The notes beneath the pieces were generated by a model. That model was not told the origin of the DNA, searched no databases, and saw only the letters and a list, made by a program, of their open reading frames with translations. Source: Ignavibacteriaceae bacterium (GTDB taxonomy: Bacteria > Bacteroidota > Ignavibacteria > Ignavibacteriales > Ignavibacteriaceae). From it: a DNA stretch of 5,610 nucleotides. Shown here in pieces: positions 2 through 5,610 of the stretch (positions are counted from its first letter, which is position 1; every line of letters begins with the position of its first letter). The stretch covers positions 1 through 5,610 of the forward strand of contig JALHTS010000338.1 in NCBI GenBank assembly GCA_022865965.1. Direction: 5' to 3'. A program made the position numbers and the translations under genes.

Positions 2-895
2 GGACTTGGGAAATGTGATGAAGAGAAATTCGGTACAGATCCAGAAAATCCAGATACCGATGGAGATGGTTTAAAAGATGGTGAGGAAGTCCTTACATAT
101 ATTACCAACCCGCTGAAAGCGGATACTGATGGTGATGGTCTGAAAGATGGTGAGGAAGTATTGAAGTACAAAACCGATCCTAATATAGCTGATACCGACA
201 GTGATGGCTTGAAAGACGGCGAAGAAGTTCTTACATATAAAACTGATCCATTAGTAGCTGATTCTGATAAAGACGGTTTAAACGATGGTGACGAAGTATT
301 GAAATATAAAACCGATCCATTACAAGTTGATACCGATGGTGATGGCTTAAGCGACGGTAATGAAGTATTGAAATACAAAACTGATCCTTTAAAAGCTGAT
401 ACCGATGGTGATGGTTTAAATGATGATAAAGAAGTAATGACTTACAAAACCGATCCTCTGAAAGTCGATACCGATGGTGGTTCAGTTGGTGATGGTGTTG
501 AAGTTAAACGTGGAACCGATCCGCTTGATCCTAAAGATGATGTAATAAAGATAGATGTTCCTATTGTTCTTGAAGGTATTACATTTGCATTCGATAAATC
601 TGATATTACCCCTGAATCGGATAAAGTTCTGATGGGTGCTCTTAAGACATTACAGATACACTCTGATATTATAGTTGAAATAAGCGGTCATACCGATAAC
701 GTCGGCAGCAATGCATACAACCAAAAATTATCTCAGAGAAGAGCTGATGCTGTTAAAGCATGGCTTGTTGCAAAAGGCATTCCTTTTGAAAGAATAACTT
801 CGGTTGGTTATGGCGAAGAACATCCTCGAGTTCCAAATGATACAGAGGATAACAGAAGATTGAATCGACGAATTGAGTTCAAACGAATTAAGTAA
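2..895 (+). CDS. OmpA-family outer-membrane protein with TSP3 calcium-binding repeats, 5' end missing
   Basis: The reading frame is open from base 2 and the start lies before the window, so only 297 C-terminal residues are visible. A TTG at 161 is in frame but lies inside the repeats and is not a credible start. The first part is a tandem array of Asp-rich TSP3-like repeats (pattern DTDGDGLxDGxEVLxYKTDP), expected to bind calcium and form a stiff rod. From about base 557 an OmpA C-terminal domain follows, with the core ITFAFDKSDI, the GHTDNVGS motif, LSQRRADAV, GYGEEHP and the closing NRRIEF. In known OmpA domains the Asp of GHTD (here 695-697) and the Arg of the LSxxRA motif (here 740-742) bind peptidoglycan diaminopimelate, and both are present. 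The likely role is non-covalent anchoring of the outer membrane to peptidoglycan. Whether a beta-barrel or adhesin domain precedes the repeats cannot be seen. A strong terminator follows the stop. Confidence 0.93.
   Translation, partial: GLGKCDEEKFGTDPENPDTDGDGLKDGEEVLTYITNPLKADTDGDGLKDGEEVLKYKTDPNIADTDSDGLKDGEEVLTYKTDPLVADSDKDGLNDGDEVLKYKTDPLQVDTDGDGLSDGNEVLKYKTDPLKADTDGDGLNDDKEVMTYKTDPLKVDTDGGSVGDGVEVKRGTDPLDPKDDVIKIDVPIVLEGITFAFDKSDITPESDKVLMGALKTLQIHSDIIVEISGHTDNVGSNAYNQKLSQRRADAVKAWLVAKGIPFERITSVGYGEEHPRVPNDTEDNRRLNRRIEFKRIK
53..541 (+). repeat. Tandem 69-bp TSP3-type coding repeats (six full units plus a degenerate last one)
   Basis: Units of 23 codons begin at 53, 122, 191, 260, 329 and 398. 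A seventh, diverged unit begins at 467, where the third acidic position is lost (DTDGGSVGDG) before RGTDPLDPKDD. A different, shorter-spaced unit end (CDEEKFGTDP) precedes them, so the array continues upstream. Each full unit has acidic residues at alternate positions (DTDGDG) followed by DGxEV, the calcium-loop pattern of TSP3 repeats. The residue after EVL/EVM runs T, K, T, K, K, T. This near-alternation suggests that part of the array grew by duplication of two-unit blocks. Synonymous differences between units are numerous, so the array is not freshly expanded. Confidence 0.9.
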
Positions 896-943: not shown

Positions 944-1057
944 TTAAAATCCAACAGAATTGCTTTACCCCAGGAGCTAAGGAATACTTTTGCAGAAACA
1001 ATTGAATTCTATGTTGCCTAAAAATTATCTACAAAAGACTATTTATTCTCAACCAAT

Positions 1058-1118
1058 AGGACTAACTCCTTTTTCATCCTTTCGCTCGATTGAACTATCA
1101 TACTTATGTTCTTACCTT
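1058..1118 (+). promoter_or_regulatory. Shared promoter module, copy A (upstream of the lmo0937-family gene)
   Basis: This is the first of three copies of an intergenic module. It contains AGGA (1058-1061) and TCCT (1067-1070) around a 5-base spacer, TTTTTCATCC (1070-1079), TTTCGC and TCGATTGA (1086-1093). The -35-like TTGAAC is at 1090-1095 and a weak -10-like TACCTT at 1113-1118, with 17 bp between them. Bases 1070-1093 are identical to 4471-4494. A start near 1125 would give a leader of about 40 nt before the ATG at 1166. An inverted repeat, TATGTT (1105-1110) and AACATA (1119-1124), straddles the -10 and could be an operator. The promoter reading is inferred from conservation and spacing; the -10 here is the poorest of the three. 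Confidence 0.65.
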
Positions 1119-1165
1119 AACATAGAATCTAAACGAAGAAATACTTAATTGAAAGGCTACTTACT

Positions 1166-1315
1166 ATGTTATATACAATCGCAGTTGTTCTTGTCGTCTT
1201 ATGGCTACTTGGACTAGTCTCATCGTACACTATGGGTGGCGTTATTCACATTCTTTTGGTCATTGCAATAATAATGATCTTAGTTAATTTCATCCGGGGA
1301 CGTCGCGCAGTTTGA
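1166..1315 (+). CDS. lmo0937-family small membrane protein (49 aa)
   Basis: This short gene encodes 49 residues with two hydrophobic helices (about residues 2-18 and 24-43) joined by the turn SSYTMGG and ending in the basic tail RGRRAV. The opening MLYTIAVVL, the central LWLLGLVSSYTMGG, and IHILLVIAI followed by NFIRGRR match my memory of the lmo0937 family, about 50 residues long and common in Bacteroidota and Firmicutes. Its biochemical role is unknown; it is often found with stress-associated small proteins. By the positive-inside rule the basic tail should face the cytoplasm. AAAGG at 1152-1156 lies 9 bases before the ATG. The gene is transcribed alone or first, behind promoter copy A, and no clear terminator separates it from the gene at 1408. 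Confidence 0.88.
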   Translation: MLYTIAVVLVVLWLLGLVSSYTMGGVIHILLVIAIIMILVNFIRGRRAV

Positions 1316-1407
1316 AAACGTTTAGTGTCAAAATATTTTTATAACAAGTAGTAATCATAATTGAGGACAAAGTTTAAATTCTCAATGAATTGTAAGGAAA
1401 AATAACA

Positions 1408-1920
1408 ATGTTATTTAATCAACTTCGTACTCTTAGATTTCCGGACATACTTACTCTTGTTGGTTTATTATGCGTTTCATTTTCAGTTTATTTTTCCTTC
1501 AAAGGGTTTTTAGTAATTGCATACTTTCTTATCCTAACGCAATTCCTCTTAGATTATTTTGATGGGAAGTTAGCAAGAGCAATTGGAGGTGGCGTGCTGG
1601 GTGTTTATCTGGACAGTTTTACAGATTTTATGGCAGTTTCTGCCTCGGTTGTATTTGGCTGGTTTGTTGGGATAAATGGTATTGCTATGCTCATTGCCGG
1701 ATTTTTAAACATTGGAGCAGCATCAATAAGATTGGCATATTTTACGGCATATAAACAAAAGGGCTTCACTGGTATTCCAACAGTATTAGCTGCTTCAGCA
1801 GTCTCTACAATTGCTTTACTTGGATATTTATTTGCCAAAGAATATCTCGTTTGGTTTGTGATTTTTTATTTTGTTTCGGCAGTTGCTATGATATCTGATT
1901 TAAAACTAAAAAAAATATAA
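1408..1920 (+). CDS. CDP-alcohol phosphatidyltransferase family protein, phosphatidylserine synthase-like
   Basis: The 170-residue membrane protein carries the CDP-alcohol phosphatidyltransferase signature: D49-x2-D52-G53-x2-A56-R57, then G65, D69 and D73. The four aspartates bind divalent metal and act in displacing CMP from a CDP-linked lipid such as CDP-diacylglycerol. The N-terminal FPDILTLVGLLC and the later RLAYF...GFTGIPTVLAASA resemble type II phosphatidylserine synthases (PssA), where a GLP-like motif follows RLARF. I therefore favour PS synthase or a close relative, but the acceptor alcohol cannot be fixed from sequence. Five or six hydrophobic segments are visible. The spacing between A-R and the conserved G is 7 residues, not the 8 I expect for the family. 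AAGGA (1394-1398) lies 9 bases before the ATG. A possible weak promoter (TTGAAA 1312-1317, TATTTT 1334-1339) overlaps the end of the previous gene. It leads a three-gene operon. Confidence 0.85.
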   Translation: MLFNQLRTLRFPDILTLVGLLCVSFSVYFSFKGFLVIAYFLILTQFLLDYFDGKLARAIGGGVLGVYLDSFTDFMAVSASVVFGWFVGINGIAMLIAGFLNIGAASIRLAYFTAYKQKGFTGIPTVLAASAVSTIALLGYLFAKEYLVWFVIFYFVSAVAMISDLKLKKI

Positions 1921-1932
1921 TCAAATAATTTT

Positions 1933-3006
1933 ATGACTGAGAAAATTAATTCTTTTCCCGGATTTCGCATTATTGTCGGCGCGGCAGCACTAGTGATAAT
2001 AATCTCAGGGATTTATCTTGCCCAATCAGTTGTGGTATTATTTCTTGTGTCTGTTTTTCTTGCCTCACTTGGAATTCCACCGCTGCTCTGGTTAAAAGAA
2101 AAACACATTCCATCCGTAGTTGCAGTGTTAATCGTTATGGCAGGGATGGTAATTATTATAATTCTGATTGGCGCACAGATTGGCTCATCCTTTAGCAACT
2201 TTTTAGATCAGTTGCCTTTATTTCAGTCAAGTATTCGGGAACAAGTCCTGGAACTTAGCGCATATTTAAGAAGCAAGGGTTTTTCAGGAACTCAAAAATT
2301 ATTACTAGATTATGTTAAACCGGAAGTACTGCTAAAGCTTACTGCCAACTTGCTATCTGGACTGAGTTCTGTGCTTTCCGATCTTGCTCTTATCCTACTT
2401 ATTGTAACCTTTATCATGCTTGAAGTATCAAGCTTTCCTATAAAGCTTCGTGCAGTACTTGGTGATCCAAAACAAAAATTCCCTAAGTTCACAGAGTTCG
2501 TTAATGATATGAAACGTTATATGGTTATTAAAACTCTTATAAGTTTGGCTACAGGTGTTTTGATAGCGTTTTGGTTATACATTCTTGATGTAGATTATCC
2601 AATACTATGGGGGTTTATAGCCTTTCTGCTTAATTATATTCCTAATATAGGATCTATTGTAGCTGCTATCCCAGCGTTGATCTTGTCGTTCATACAGTTT
2701 GGAATTGGTAGTGCTGTGCTGGTTACGGTGGGATATATTGTTGTTAACTTTATAATAGGTAATGTTATTGAACCTCGTTTGATGGGCAGAAAATTTGGGC
2801 TCTCTACGTTGGTTGTTTTTCTTTCTCTTATTTTTTGGGGTGCCTTGCTTGGATTGGTAGGTGCAATTCTTTCTGTTCCGCTAACTATGACATTGAAGTT
2901 TGCATTTGAAAATAATGAAAGCACAAAATGGATTGCTGTTTTGCTCGGATCAGAAAAATCTGATGAACTATCTGTTCCCATATCCAGCAAGAAGAAAAAA
3001 GGATGA
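1933..3006 (+). CDS. AI-2E family transporter (multi-pass membrane permease)
   Basis: This 357-residue protein has the layout and usual length of the AI-2E (TqsA/PerM-type) family. It has an N-terminal hydrophobic pair (about residues 12-50), a third segment near 58-85, and an amphipathic soluble stretch of about 60 residues rich in Leu, Ser and Lys. A second membrane block follows. It contains the family hallmarks LNYIPNIGSIVAAIP (about 233-247) and NVIEPRLMGRKFGLS (277-291), then a hydrophobic hairpin ending in GAILSVPLT. Members were named for autoinducer-2 export, but others are linked to sodium/proton antiport and many have no known substrate, so the name should not be taken as a quorum-sensing role. 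The gene begins 12 bases after the previous stop without a visible Shine-Dalgarno site, suggesting coupled translation. It ends in a lysine-rich tail (KKKKG) and overlaps the next gene by 4 bp. Confidence 0.92.
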   Translation: MTEKINSFPGFRIIVGAAALVIIISGIYLAQSVVVLFLVSVFLASLGIPPLLWLKEKHIPSVVAVLIVMAGMVIIIILIGAQIGSSFSNFLDQLPLFQSSIREQVLELSAYLRSKGFSGTQKLLLDYVKPEVLLKLTANLLSGLSSVLSDLALILLIVTFIMLEVSSFPIKLRAVLGDPKQKFPKFTEFVNDMKRYMVIKTLISLATGVLIAFWLYILDVDYPILWGFIAFLLNYIPNIGSIVAAIPALILSFIQFGIGSAVLVTVGYIVVNFIIGNVIEPRLMGRKFGLSTLVVFLSLIFWGALLGLVGAILSVPLTMTLKFAFENNESTKWIAVLLGSEKSDELSVPISSKKKKG

Positions 3007-4391
3007 TAAAAACAACACACAATAGAAATGAATGGTCTGATTGGAGAAATATATCACCACGAAAATTTGTGAAAACTGTAAGTTTTATTGTTGGCGCAAT
3101 ATTTCTCGTTAGTGTAATAATCTTCGTTTTCTTTCCGGACCCTTTTATTAACGCCTTTGTAAAAAACAAAATTTCAAACGCCTTTACGGAAGCTTATCCA
3201 GAATATTCATTACAGATTGGTGACATCCATTATAGTGTGTGGCAGAATCTTTTGGAATGTGATTCTGTAACACTTAAAACAAAAGACTCAACTTTTTCTT
3301 GCAACGTTGATTCAGTTTCAATTAGTGGAATAAGTTGGATGAGTATTCTTACACAAAATAATTTTAATTCCAAGACACTTTTAAGCTCAGTAATAGATGC
3401 ACAAAATATTGTATTCAGTTTTCATAAGTTACAGAATGAACTTAGCCTTGGGATGCTGCATATATCGGTACCTGATTCTGAAATGGCAACTGATTCAATT
3501 AAATACCATTCTTTAATTAACGATGAGCAATTCTTCGCAAAAAGTCAATTCAGGCAAACCAGGCTTCAGTTTGATATATCTCAAATTAAAATAATAGGTT
3601 TTGATTTTGAGTCCCTGCTTCAGGGGAATACATACACTGCCAGAAAAATTTATATGCAGGATGTGTTTACCGATATTCTGTTGAACAAGGATAAGCCTAA
3701 TGACGAGAACGCCCCATATCCACATATGCCGAATGAAGTACTGCCTTCGATGAAGGAAATAATTAACATAGACAGTTTTGAAATCACAAATGGACGGTTG
3801 AAATATTCTGAAAGATTTGCTGTTAATACTATACCAGGGGTGATTACATTCGATAAATTCAACATTTCAGTAAGTAGATTTGCTAATCATACAGCTCAAC
3901 CCGAAACTACTATTATTCGTGGGAATGGACTTTTTATGAATTCCGCCGAGATGAAAGTGTTTATGGCAATTCCCCTTACATCAAAAGAATTTTCTTTACA
4001 ATACTCAGGTTCACTTAGCAAAATGGATGTGGCTAAGCTAAATGTATTTATTGAACCGGTTGAAAATCGGCATATTGAATCAGGAGTCATTCAATCTGCA
4101 AATTATGATATCAATGTTAATTCAGGCTCTGCAAGCGGTAATTTGCGAGTTGCCTATAATGATCTGGCACTCACTATTTTCAATAAAAACACTGGATTTG
4201 ATTTAGGACTTTTAGATCATATCTCCAATTATATTGGTGATATGTTTATTATCCGAACAACCAATTTGCCGGATGAAAAAGGCTTAATGAAGATTGGTGA
4301 AATAAATTACAAACGAAATCCGACAGACTATTTTCTCCAGTTTCTCTGGATGGCTCTTCGAAGCGGAGTTGGTGATGTTGTTGGATTTTAG
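3003..4391 (+). CDS. AsmA-like membrane-anchored periplasmic protein of unknown function
   Basis: The 462-residue product starts with a basic cytoplasmic end, one membrane helix (about residues 25-45, ending FVFFPDPFIN), and a long beta-rich periplasmic region. After the helix, KNKISNAF...YSLQIGDIHYSVWQNLLECDSVTL has the look of the AsmA/DUF748 N-terminal element, where a polypeptide leaving the membrane opens a repeating beta-groove. The C-terminal part (ERFAVNTIPGVITFDKFNIS, then IESGVIQSANYDINV, then the GSASGNLRVAYNDLAL segment at 375-390) fits the AsmA-like C-terminal pattern. A conserved-looking amphipathic end, DYFLQFLWMALRSGVGDVVG, follows. Several AsmA-like proteins are implicated in moving phospholipids between inner and outer membranes; that role here is inference. 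The start is set by the ATGA overlap with the AI-2E gene, with AAAAAAGG directly before it. It is the last gene of the operon. I see no convincing terminator after the stop. Confidence 0.6.
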   Translation: MIKTTHNRNEWSDWRNISPRKFVKTVSFIVGAIFLVSVIIFVFFPDPFINAFVKNKISNAFTEAYPEYSLQIGDIHYSVWQNLLECDSVTLKTKDSTFSCNVDSVSISGISWMSILTQNNFNSKTLLSSVIDAQNIVFSFHKLQNELSLGMLHISVPDSEMATDSIKYHSLINDEQFFAKSQFRQTRLQFDISQIKIIGFDFESLLQGNTYTARKIYMQDVFTDILLNKDKPNDENAPYPHMPNEVLPSMKEIINIDSFEITNGRLKYSERFAVNTIPGVITFDKFNISVSRFANHTAQPETTIIRGNGLFMNSAEMKVFMAIPLTSKEFSLQYSGSLSKMDVAKLNVFIEPVENRHIESGVIQSANYDINVNSGSASGNLRVAYNDLALTIFNKNTGFDLGLLDHISNYIGDMFIIRTTNLPDEKGLMKIGEINYKRNPTDYFLQFLWMALRSGVGDVVGF

Positions 4392-4458
4392 AAATAATTT
4401 TCTTGATGCTGTCCAAAATAGTAAAATATAATCCTGTCTTTATTTTTTCTCACCTAAT

Positions 4459-4519
4459 AGATGTAGTTCTTTTTTCATCCTTTCGCTCGATTGATTCGCT
4501 ACTCATTAACCTATATCAT
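4459..4519 (+). promoter_or_regulatory. Shared promoter module, copy B (upstream of the secreted-protein gene)
   Basis: This second copy has AGA (4459-4461) and TCT (4468-4470) around TGTAGT, TTTTTCATCC (4471-4480), TTTCGC and TCGATTGA (4487-4494). The -35-like TTGATT is at 4491-4496 and the -10-like TATCAT at 4514-4519, with 17 bp between. Relative to copy C, one G-C pair of the small AGGA/TCCT dyad is replaced by A-T on both sides, so symmetry is kept at that pair. An expected start near 4526 gives a leader of about 125 nt before the ATG at 4651. The module lies 68 bases past the stop of the AsmA-like gene. Confidence 0.72.
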
Positions 4520-4583
4520 TACTTTGTAATAAAAAGATCAACAAAGTGATTAGGAAACAAGATTAGACTCTAACTTGGTTTCC
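4518..4583 (+). other. Two adjacent inverted repeats in the leader of the secreted-protein gene
   Basis: The first repeat pairs 4518-4527 (core ACTTTGT) with 4541-4550 (core ACAAAGT) over 10 positions, including one G-T pair. It overlaps the end of the -10 element, so it is better placed as a DNA operator than as RNA. The second lies wholly in the expected leader. GGAAAC (4553-4558) pairs with GTTTCC (4578-4583), AAG with CTT, and TTAG (4563-4566) with CTAA (4570-4573), with single-base bulges at 4562 and 4577 and a three-base loop. No T-run follows directly, so it does not look like a terminator. It could affect mRNA stability or ribosome access, or belong to a small RNA. Confidence 0.45.
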
Positions 4584-4650
4584 CTTTGGTATTCGGAAGA
4601 AGAATAGTTCTAAGTATTACAAAGAATTTTTACGAGGAAAGAAGAATAAC

Positions 4651-5325
4651 ATGAAAAACAATTTTATTTATATCACTCGGATAATCCTTTTATTTGTAGC
4701 ATTGGGCTATGGTCAATCCGACAAAGAGGAAATCGTTTTAAGTTCAAAATCATATTTCCCCATTAATAATGATCTGACATTAGTTTATGAGTCATCATTT
4801 GGTGAAAGTATGACAAAATATTTTCAGGAAGGTGAATTCACCATCTGTTCAAGTGAAGCTGATAAATTTAAGTATAGACAGGCTTTGCTGATAAAAGAAG
4901 ACGGCGTGTTTGTAAAAGAAACATATCAGTTCTTAAAAATATTTCTATTCATTAAAAAAGAAACAACCTTTACATATGGAAAACCGTTGCTACGATTCCC
5001 TCTCCCTTTGTTACCTGATATGGAATGGAAATGGGAAGGAGACGAATATTCAGACGGTGAAGCGAATAAAGTTACGGTTACAGGAAAGGCTTTTGATAAA
5101 GAATTTATTATGACTAAAGCCGGAAGATTTGAAGCTATAAAATTGGAAACTATTGTGGTGGGTTCTTCCGATTCTAAAAATAGAGTAACTGAATGGTATG
5201 CTGAAGGGATTGGGTTAATAAAAGCAAAAATAGTAATTGAAGGCGGTGGACTGATGGGAGTTCTTAGGGATATTTTAGGATATGGAACCATCGAATTTGA
5301 ATTAAAAGAAATAAGAAAGCAATGA
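4651..5325 (+). CDS. Secreted protein of unknown function with TapB/DUF3108-like C-terminal motif
   Basis: The 224-residue product starts with a Sec-type signal peptide: basic MKNN, the hydrophobic run ITRIILLFVALGYG, and likely cleavage near residue 21 before QSDKEE. There is no lipobox cysteine, so it should be soluble in the periplasm or exported. The mature part is beta-rich. It opens with YFPINNDLTLVYES, which recalls the 'YYPLKEGNTWVYE' start of TapB/DUF3108-like proteins, and has LPDMEWKWEGDE in the middle. It ends with AGRFEAIKLET followed by TEWYAEGIGLIK (W182-L189 core), a spacing seen in that group. The family match is from memory of motifs, and no function is established. GAGGAAA at 4634-4640 precedes the ATG. 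The gene stands alone between two copies of the shared promoter module, and I see no strong terminator behind it. Confidence 0.72.
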   Translation: MKNNFIYITRIILLFVALGYGQSDKEEIVLSSKSYFPINNDLTLVYESSFGESMTKYFQEGEFTICSSEADKFKYRQALLIKEDGVFVKETYQFLKIFLFIKKETTFTYGKPLLRFPLPLLPDMEWKWEGDEYSDGEANKVTVTGKAFDKEFIMTKAGRFEAIKLETIVVGSSDSKNRVTEWYAEGIGLIKAKIVIEGGGLMGVLRDILGYGTIEFELKEIRKQ

Positions 5326-5400
5326 ATAATTATTACTTTCTGAATTTTTTTATCTGCAAATAGTTCACAACCCGGATAGGTATCGAACAAACCCACCTAA

Positions 5401-5462
5401 AGGATGTAGTTCCTTTTTCATCCATTTGGTCGATTGAACAATCCTAAATTACTTTATATCAT
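5401..5462 (+). promoter_or_regulatory. Shared promoter module, copy C (upstream of the gene leaving the window)
   Basis: The third copy has AGGA (5401-5404) and TCCT (5411-5414) around TGTAGT, TTTTTCATCC (5414-5423), a diverged ATTTGG, then TCGATTGA (5430-5437). The -35-like TTGAAC is at 5434-5439 and the -10-like TATCAT at 5457-5462, 17 bp apart. It matches copies A and B at 21 of the 24 positions of their identical core. A GGATG (5402-5406)/CATCC (5419-5423) dyad is complete here, reduced to GATG/CATC in copy B, and absent in copy A. The expected start near 5469 gives a leader of about 130 nt. Confidence 0.72.
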
Positions 5463-5472
5463 ACTATAATAA

Positions 5473-5567
5473 TCATCAAACAGTTTGATGAAATATCTTT
5501 TGCGGGTGAATAAATCAGAAACCGCAAAGAATGATATAAAAATTCCTGATCTCAATTAAAGGAGATC
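5473..5567 (+). other. Structured leader with three inverted repeats after promoter copy C
   Basis: Three repeats follow one another. The first is a perfect 19-base palindrome, TCATCAAAC (5473-5481), A, GTTTGATGA (5483-5491), placed about +5 to +23 from the expected start and well suited to a dimeric repressor. The second pairs TTTGCGG (5499-5505) with CCGCAAA (5522-5528) around a 16-base loop. The third pairs GATCTC (5548-5553) with GAGATC (5562-5567). Its loop and right arm contain AAAGGAG (5558-5564), a Shine-Dalgarno-like sequence with no start codon at the usual distance. None is followed by a T-run, so these are not simple terminators. Function is unknown. Confidence 0.45.
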
Positions 5568-5601
5568 CTGTTAACAAACATATTTTGAAAGGAAAATTGC
5601 T

Positions 5602-5610
5602 GTGTCTTTA
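5602..5610 (+). CDS. Possible 5' end of the next gene (first three codons only)
   Basis: A GTG at 5602 follows AAAGGA (5588-5593) by 8 bases, much like the spacing used at 1166 and 1408. The reading frame then runs off the window after three codons. The alternative is TTG at 5585, which would read KGKLLCL and could begin a signal peptide, but it lacks a well-spaced ribosome site. The gene would be driven by promoter copy C. Nothing can be said about its product. Confidence 0.35.

What the first reader, a model, noticed from the sequence alone, without database searches (positions are those of the whole stretch)
1058..5462. A roughly 60-bp promoter module repeated three times defines a candidate regulon
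Positions 1058-1118, 4459-4519 and 5401-5462 carry the same module in the same orientation. Copies A and B share 24 identical consecutive bases (1070-1093 and 4471-4494); copy C matches 21 of those 24. In all three, CATCC starts exactly 15 bases before the -35-like TTGA, and a -10-like TAxCxT lies exactly 17 bp after it. The sequence upstream of the -35 is more conserved than the spacer. That pattern suggests a bound activator or repressor, not a dispersed mobile repeat. Each copy precedes one gene: an lmo0937-family protein, a secreted protein and the gene leaving the window. The intervening three-gene operon has no copy. I know of no named motif that matches.
Basis: partly seen in the sequence, partly recalled or inferred. 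Interest (0 to 1): 0.8.

Follow-up and report, generated by a model that had tools for sequence, protein, structure and literature searches.

The report
Stress-island promoters of an Ignavibacteria regulator
In Ignavibacteria, about twenty stress-type genes per genome share one nearly identical 46-base promoter-like module that co-occurs with, and often sits right beside, a gene for a NarL-type response regulator, which is therefore likely the protein that binds the module and would switch the whole set on together.

Summary
The three window copies belong to 23 sites in this genome, most likely an ignavibacterium. The module recurs in 76 of 294 genomes of the class. In 763 kb of stretches fetched because they hold sites, a matrix finds 181 sites and none in five shuffles; 156 of 181 lie at most 350 bp upstream of a co-directional gene (8% of random places) and 1 lies inside a called gene (76%). 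The module is 46 bp (about 52 bits), includes a TTGA -35, and is followed by a TAnnnT -10, mostly 19 nt on: a promoter module, not a mobile repeat. Downstream genes are stress-like: CsbD, YtxH, DUF5670, KaiC, ice-binding proteins, single cases of ferritin, PPK2 and a hibernation-factor type. A NarL/VraR-type response regulator occurs in 70 of the 76 module genomes and 12 of the other 218; of 40 regulator-family genes in the fetched stretches, 29 have a site directly before or after. Best explanation: this regulator binds the module and activates the set, its own gene included. Binding, signal and start sites are untested. No published description turned up.

The parts
1052..1093 (+). Copy A of the conserved module (upstream block plus -35 TTGA at 1090-1093)
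   Evidence: matrix score 53.8; profile hit 1053-1118, E 6.1e-14
1113..1118 (+). -10-like TACCTT of copy A
   Evidence: 19 nt after TTGA
1166..1315 (+). DUF5670 / lmo0937-family small membrane protein behind copy A
   Evidence: Pfam PF18919, NCBIfam NF033488
1408..1920 (+). CDP-alcohol phosphatidyltransferase, probably read through from copy A
   Evidence: Pfam PF01066; gene order kept in relatives without a site in between
1933..3006 (+). AI-2E family transporter, same presumed unit
   Evidence: Pfam PF01594; family found in 10 of 22 genomes' fetched stretches
3003..4391 (+). DUF748-like protein, same presumed unit
   Evidence: PF05359 24.8 bits, below the cut-off of 50
4453..4494 (+). Copy B of the module (-35 TTGA at 4491-4494)
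   Evidence: matrix score 60.0; profile hit 4454-4519, E 6.7e-14
4514..4519 (+). -10-like TATCAT of copy B
4651..5325 (+). Secreted DUF3108-like protein behind copy B
   Evidence: PF21347 26.1 bits, cut-off 27; homologues are the first gene behind a site in 6 genomes
5396..5437 (+). Copy C of the module (-35 TTGA at 5434-5437)
   Evidence: matrix score 61.6; profile hit 5397-5462, E 3.2e-17, the best in the genome
5457..5462 (+). -10-like TATCAT of copy C
5463..5601 (+). Leader behind copy C
   Evidence: 5463-5610 matches the leader on contig C15 at 133 of 148 positions
5602..5610 (+). Start (GTG) of the gene leaving the window, probably a small membrane protein like the C15 gene MSLITLVIVL...
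   Evidence: inferred from the C15 copy

Best explanation
The module is a shared promoter-plus-operator that is likely the binding site of an island-encoded NarL/VraR-type response regulator, which would recruit RNA polymerase to about twenty stress-gene promoters at once. Shown from sequence: a 46-bp conserved block that includes the -35 TTGA, a -10 TAnnnT mostly 19 nt further on, placement just upstream of co-directional genes, clustering in islands, and linkage and co-occurrence with the regulator gene. Inferred: a regulator dimer sits on the imperfect inverted repeat centred at -61.5 (AAARGR-N6-TCYTTT), contacts the CATCCYTTTG block abutting the -35, and activates sigma-70-type RNA polymerase. 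It would also activate its own gene, since a module precedes 12 of 40 regulator-family genes. Its input would come from the PAS histidine kinase and the CheB-CheR-PAS protein encoded just upstream of one regulator paralogue in several genomes. The purpose, a general-stress or stationary-phase programme, is inferred from gene content.
For: Placement: 156 of 181 sites co-directional within 350 bp, 1 inside a called gene; random places 8.2% and 76%. Promoter geometry: T-A-N3-T at exactly the -10 place in 126 of 181 sites, at most 25 at any other of the offsets tried. Co-occurrence over 294 class genomes: 70 both, 6 module only, 12 regulator only, 206 neither; repeated inside genera g4, g10, g35 and g37. 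Linkage: 29 of 40 regulator-family genes have a module at most 400 bp before the start or 200 bp behind the stop. Exceptions mostly resolve: in 11 of the 12 regulator-only genomes a weak profile hit lies 19-229 nt behind a regulator-family stretch on the same strand. The regulator is the most widespread family of the fetched stretches (19 of 22 genomes; KaiC next with 15) and none of the other families listed there is an obvious DNA-binding protein (by sequence). KaiC, a frequent target, reaches only 47 of the 76 module genomes. Signalling operon CheB-CheR-PAS, PAS kinase, regulator, module in G009, G038, G057, G253 and, shorter, G240.
Against: No binding or expression data. Four module genomes (G081, G170, G236, G255) show no close regulator, and G069 has a regulator without a neighbouring site. 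Linkage could reflect target genes that merely travel with the regulator; co-occurrence p-values ignore kinship. The inverted repeat is only modestly supported (p 0.026 against permuted columns) and the 11-bp direct repeat is not significant. 52 bits is far more than one dimer would need. The receiver lacks the usual Thr/Ser switch residue. Not all families in the stretches were scanned for DNA-binding domains.
Confidence: 0.68

Rival explanations
1. The module is read by a different, unlinked transcription factor; the NarL-type regulator is only a passenger or a target of the island.
For: Four of 76 module genomes show no close regulator; the regulator gene itself carries a module upstream in 12 of 40 cases, as a mere target would.
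Against: Near one-to-one presence (70 of 76 and 70 of 82), a weak site beside the regulator in 11 of 12 genomes that otherwise lack sites, better coverage than the frequent target KaiC (47 of 76).
Confidence: 0.2
2. The module is read by an alternative sigma factor (ECF or sigma-B-like) as its own promoter, without a separate activator.
For: Fixed spacing of the upstream block, -35 and -10; gene content overlaps the Bacillus sigma-B regulon (csbD, ytxH, dps; PMC7824861, passages); an ECF sigma gene lies behind a module in G088.
Against: The block reaches from -77 to -32 and is strongest at -66 to -41, outside an ordinary sigma footprint (footprint recalled); sites lack the sigma-B elements GTTTaa and GGGWAW quoted in PMC7824861 (read from A1); the ECF gene was seen as first gene in one genome only.
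Confidence: 0.09
3. The module is a dispersed mobile or recombination repeat that happens to carry promoter-like sequence.
For: Near-identical copies, island clustering (16 of 20 sites of G220 within 47 kb), patchy distribution.
Against: 1 of 181 inside called genes against 76% at random and 156 of 181 co-directional; fixed -10 distance; conservation falls away upstream of about -77; the same gene families keep a copy across genera; no exact match in viral contigs.
Confidence: 0.03

Closest known systems
DevR/DosR regulon (Mycobacterium) and OsdR regulon (Streptomyces coelicolor)
   Same: A NarL-family response regulator with tens of stress or dormancy targets and an operator before its own gene; OsdR has 43 predicted sites before 27 transcription units, one at -81 of osdR (PMC5069765, passages).
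   Different: OsdR's operator is a 16-nt palindrome; here a 46-bp block is fixed in place against the -35. Targets differ and cluster in islands; the regulator matches DevR only at family level (E 4e-18).
VraR and NarL response regulators
   Same: Full-length receiver plus GerE match (VraR E 1e-28, NarL 2e-26); Asp56, acidic pair and Lys106 kept.
   Different: Asp84 (Gly in the G088 copies) where VraR has Thr; 129 bits against the NCBIfam NarL cut-off of 250.
Bacillus sigma-B general stress regulon
   Same: Shared target types: CsbD, YtxH, ferritin-like protein (csbD, ytxH, dps in PMC7824861, passages).
   Different: No sigma-B type promoter; control would be by a response regulator; KaiC, ice-binding and T9SS-tailed proteins are added.

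Membership tests
NarL-family response-regulator regulon | Regulator with receiver plus GerE/LuxR helix-turn-helix | tested here: met
   Response_reg and GerE above cut-off; PDB matches VraR, NarL, DevR
NarL-family response-regulator regulon | Canonical phospho-switch residues in the receiver | tested here: inconclusive
   Asp56, Glu10, Asp11 and Lys106 invariant or nearly so; the Thr/Ser position holds Asp or Gly in the rows examined (20 rows)
NarL-family response-regulator regulon | Palindromic operator | tested here: inconclusive
   Best centre -61.5, p 0.026 against permuted columns; paired columns 9/16 do not covary, 11/14 do but not as base complements in the commonest form
NarL-family response-regulator regulon | Operator before the regulator's own gene | tested here: met
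   12 of 40 regulator-family genes; 19 of 40 have it behind the stop instead
NarL-family response-regulator regulon | Direct binding and control of the targets | not testable with these tools
   needs footprinting or expression data
Sigma-B type general stress regulon | Stress gene content (CsbD, YtxH, Dps/ferritin type) | tested here: met
   against the list in PMC7824861; ferritin as first gene in one case only
Sigma-B type general stress regulon | GTTTaa -35 and GGGWAW -10 | tested here: not met
   sites have TTGA and TAnnnT
Dispersed mobile repeat | Copies placed without regard to gene starts and orientation | tested here: not met
   156 of 181 co-directional within 350 bp, 1 inside a called gene
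Known RNA element | Match to an Rfam family | tested here: not met
   0 matches in the window at gathering score

The most novel reading that the evidence does not exclude
Ignavibacteria carry a portable general-stress island: some 15-25 transcription units, each behind the same 46-bp operator-promoter, gained or lost as a set together with a dedicated, self-activating NarL-type regulator whose receiver has an atypical Asp or Gly switch residue and may not work by ordinary phosphorylation. It would be a sigma-factor-free counterpart of the Bacillus sigma-B programme with KaiC and a CheB-CheR-PAS sensor wired in.
Probability: 0.4. Interest if true: 0.75.

Novelty: new variant of a known kind. 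Interest (0 to 1): 0.64.

Why it matters
It would give a class of mostly uncultured bacteria a defined stress regulon with a candidate regulator, an operator and a gene list that can be checked in metatranscriptomes or in a cultured relative carrying the island. The length and rigidity of the operator (about 52 bits, tied to the -35, kept even on a contig of 62% GC) and the atypical receiver raise a direct question: how and why one regulator keeps some twenty promoters so alike across families. It also puts unknown families (DUF5670, DUF6600, DUF3108-like, a basic protein of about 41 residues, DUF4070 radical SAM) and a non-cyanobacterial KaiC in a stress context.

Tried and rejected
Mobile repeat: rejected on placement. 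Known RNA element: no Rfam match in the window; the block lies upstream of the -10 and would not be transcribed from this promoter. Half-site reading as an 11-bp direct repeat of TCCYTTT: best score 2.14, below the 95% point of permuted columns, 3.30. Viral carriage: 0 exact matches in viral contigs with one pattern. Spread beyond the class: 14 of 296 phylum genomes positive, all 14 in the own class (stricter filters). tRNA-bounded island: no tRNA in 12 of the fetched stretches scanned. Transfer against loss was not tested with a tree. No structure was predicted.

Papers: listings only (no hit); none of the listed titles or abstract starts describes this motif or an Ignavibacteria stress regulon. 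Of 81 papers holding one of three typed oligomers only 10 were listed. Passages were read in PMC7824861 and PMC5069765. The library lacks most subscription papers and bioRxiv.

Limits: match counts are capped at 17 scored candidates, so only presence was used. Searches used stricter filters. The 30 stretches were chosen because they hold sites. Genes there come from a simple ORF caller of mine (an earlier, cruder one): of 181 sites, 25 were not co-directional within 350 bp (17 farther, 4 facing another gene, 3 at contig ends, 1 inside). Some of the 17 have a DUF5670 or other small gene between that the caller missed (G038 12584; compare); 3 of the 4 facing cases are on G274 (62% GC), where the caller took antisense ORFs and missed two regulators that one search places there. 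The 20 sites of A1 trained both the profile and the matrix. The E<=1e-55 cut for the regulator is mine, set in the gap between 1.3e-56 and 4.1e-40. For G173 the neighbouring regulator stretch is partial, with a stop (E 2.2e-49), not the strong hit. The window's assembly has 7.84% contamination, so some of its 23 sites may belong to a second close strain; G220 and G253 (about 1%) have 20 and 28 hits at E<=0.01.
Full report
What is in the window. Three copies of one module stand in the same orientation at 1052-1118, 4453-4519 and 5396-5462. Copy A precedes a DUF5670/lmo0937-family gene (1166-1315), copy B a secreted DUF3108-like gene (4651-5325; 26.1 bits, cut-off 27), copy C the gene leaving the window. 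The leader behind copy C matches one on contig C15 at 133 of 148 positions; the gene there starts MSLITLVIVLVVVGVVLWLINSYIPM, so the window probably ends just after its GTG start at 5602.

How many copies. In the genome that holds the window (G000, 3.03 Mb, 741 contigs, 7.84% contamination) the 24-mer at up to 3 mismatches gives 26 hits against 2 for the reversed control. An alignment of 20 sites (A1) made into a sequence-only profile R1 gives 23 hits at E<=4e-6, the next being 0.011. R1, built from G000 sites only, finds multi-site genomes among 59 genomes (own included) with E down to 3e-17. Of 294 genomes of the class 76 have a hit at E<=1e-4; of 296 of the phylum 14 do, all in the own class. 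A named scan with 22 fixed bases gave 40 stretches, from MAGs titled Ignavibacteria, Ignavibacteriae, Ignavibacteriales, Ignavibacteriaceae, Melioribacter, Melioribacteraceae, Stygiobacter, or less specifically Bacteroidetes, Bacteroidia or BMS3Abin03. The organism is therefore most likely an ignavibacterium.

It is a promoter module. I scanned 30 stretches that hold sites (763,131 bases, 22 genomes, G000 included) with a 42-column matrix: 181 sites, none in five shuffles. 156 lay at most 350 bp upstream of a co-directional gene (median 103.5 bp); 17 were farther, 4 faced another gene, 3 were at contig ends and 1 was inside a called ORF. Random places give 8.2% and 76%. The pooled profile has about 52 bits over 46 columns, from -77 to -32 if the -10 hexamer is put at -12 to -7. 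Consensus: CTCACCCAAAAGATGTAGTTCCTTTTTCATCCCTTTGnnCGATTGA. Upstream of it conservation falls to about nothing, the spacer is weak, and the last T of the -10 is 94% conserved. T-A-N3-T occurs at that exact place in 126 of 181 sites, at most 25 at any other offset tried. Two flavours of the upstream half exist, GATGTAGTTC and GGATTAATCC; columns 11 and 14 change together. The AT-rich module is kept even on a contig of 62% GC (G274).

Islands. In G220, 16 of 20 hits at E<=0.01 lie within 47 kb of 3.0 Mb, all 16 on one strand; in G253, 15 of 28 lie within 65 kb of 4.1 Mb, all 15 on one strand. The 166 first genes behind sites form recurrent clusters: ice-binding proteins (18; the representative has Ice_binding and a T9SS tail), KaiC (14), the NarL-type regulator (12), CsbD (11), a DUF4070 radical SAM protein (9), the DUF3108-like family (6), YtxH (6), DUF6600 (6), a hybrid histidine kinase (5), DUF5670 (5 seen by the caller), and single cases of PPK2, ferritin, S30AE, Nramp and an ECF sigma (families).

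The regulator. A 229-residue receiver plus GerE protein, nearest in the PDB to VraR and NarL, is the most widespread family of the fetched stretches: 40 genes in 19 of 22 genomes (one, G088 132338, looks like a more distant NarL-type protein). Of the 40, 12 have a module at most 400 bp before the start, 19 one within 200 bp behind the stop, 29 one or the other. Over 294 genomes a strong homologue (E<=1e-55) occurs in 70 of 76 module genomes and 12 of 218 others. The p-value (2e-47) ignores kinship, but the contrast repeats inside genera: g4 (G004, G288 against G031, G282, G309), g10 (G010 against G035), g35 (G043 against G303), g37 (G045, G220, G253, G306 against G052).

Exceptions. For the 12 genomes with regulator but no strong site, a looser search finds a hit 19-229 nt behind a regulator-family stretch on its strand in 11, all but G069; these hits are weak (E 2.8e-4 to 0.37) and count only through their place. 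Of the six with sites but no strong regulator, G048 has a regulator stretch with stop codons 66 nt before a site, G062 a 66%-identical fragment at a contig edge, and G081, G170, G236, G255 nothing close. KaiC occurs in 47 genomes, all of them module genomes, but misses 29 of the 76, so the regulator is the more constant companion. In G009, G038, G057 and G253 the order CheB-CheR-PAS, PAS histidine kinase, regulator, module is kept; G240 shows the same with shorter calls; on G000 contig C219 the kinase pieces run into a module at the contig end.

Mechanism. I propose that the regulator binds the module beside RNA polymerase and activates. The geometry is inferred from position only: an imperfect inverted repeat AAARGR-N6-TCYTTT centred at -61.5 (p 0.026) and the CATCCYTTTG block ending at -41 against the -35. 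The receiver keeps Asp56, the acidic pair and Lys106 but has Asp84 (Gly in the G088 copies) where VraR has Thr, so how the signal acts is open. Repression cannot be excluded. Sigma-factor control alone is less likely because the strongest conservation lies at -66 to -41.

Comparison. It works like the DevR/DosR and OsdR regulons (NarL-type regulator, operator before its own gene, tens of targets; PMC5069765) and shares target types with the Bacillus sigma-B regulon (csbD, ytxH, dps; PMC7824861). It is filed under neither: the operator is longer and tied to the promoter, and the promoters are not of sigma-B type. Searches showed no description in print, within the limits of that library.

Verdict. 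Observation confirmed; interpretation supported and extended to a class-restricted, island-borne, stress-type regulon with a candidate regulator. Confidence 0.68 concerns that regulator as binder and activator; the promoter-module reading is firmer.

Noticed in passing
window 2-895: OmpA protein with TSP3 repeats at the left edge clusters with a family found in fetched stretches of 9 of 22 genomes, so the window's left gene also belongs to the island; no module is seen before it because its start lies outside the window.
   Followed up: partly
window 5463-5601 and L031:141-279 (minus strand): The leader behind copy C and the one on contig C15 match at 133 of 148 positions (with the first codons), including a GATCTC-AATTAAAG-GAGATC inverted repeat; a conserved leader or a copy from a second strain.
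   Followed up: partly
L027:6662-7972: PAS part and ATPase part of a histidine kinase lie in two ORFs that are one gene in relatives; assembly error or broken gene, left as it is.
   Followed up: no
alignment A2 column 84: The regulator family has Asp (Gly in G088) where VraR has the conserved Thr of the receiver; phospho-Asp is kept.
   Followed up: partly
L132:6107-6232 and relatives: A basic protein of about 41 residues (MSKGQ..KKGSKKEP..) with no Pfam or NCBIfam match is found in 14 of 22 genomes' stretches, often behind a module.
   Followed up: no
L167:8508-9137 (minus strand): An ECF sigma gene lies 76 nt behind a module that itself follows a regulator gene in G088, a possible cascade.
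   Followed up: no
L028:3419-3460, L137:3689, L139:18813 and other KaiC promoters: Modules before KaiC genes mostly read GGACTATTGT or a close form at the -35 end instead of GnnCGATTGA, a gene-specific variant kept across genera.
   Followed up: no
G048:C132:232-780: A regulator stretch with several stop codons still sits 66 nt before a module, as if the regulator were being lost.
   Followed up: no
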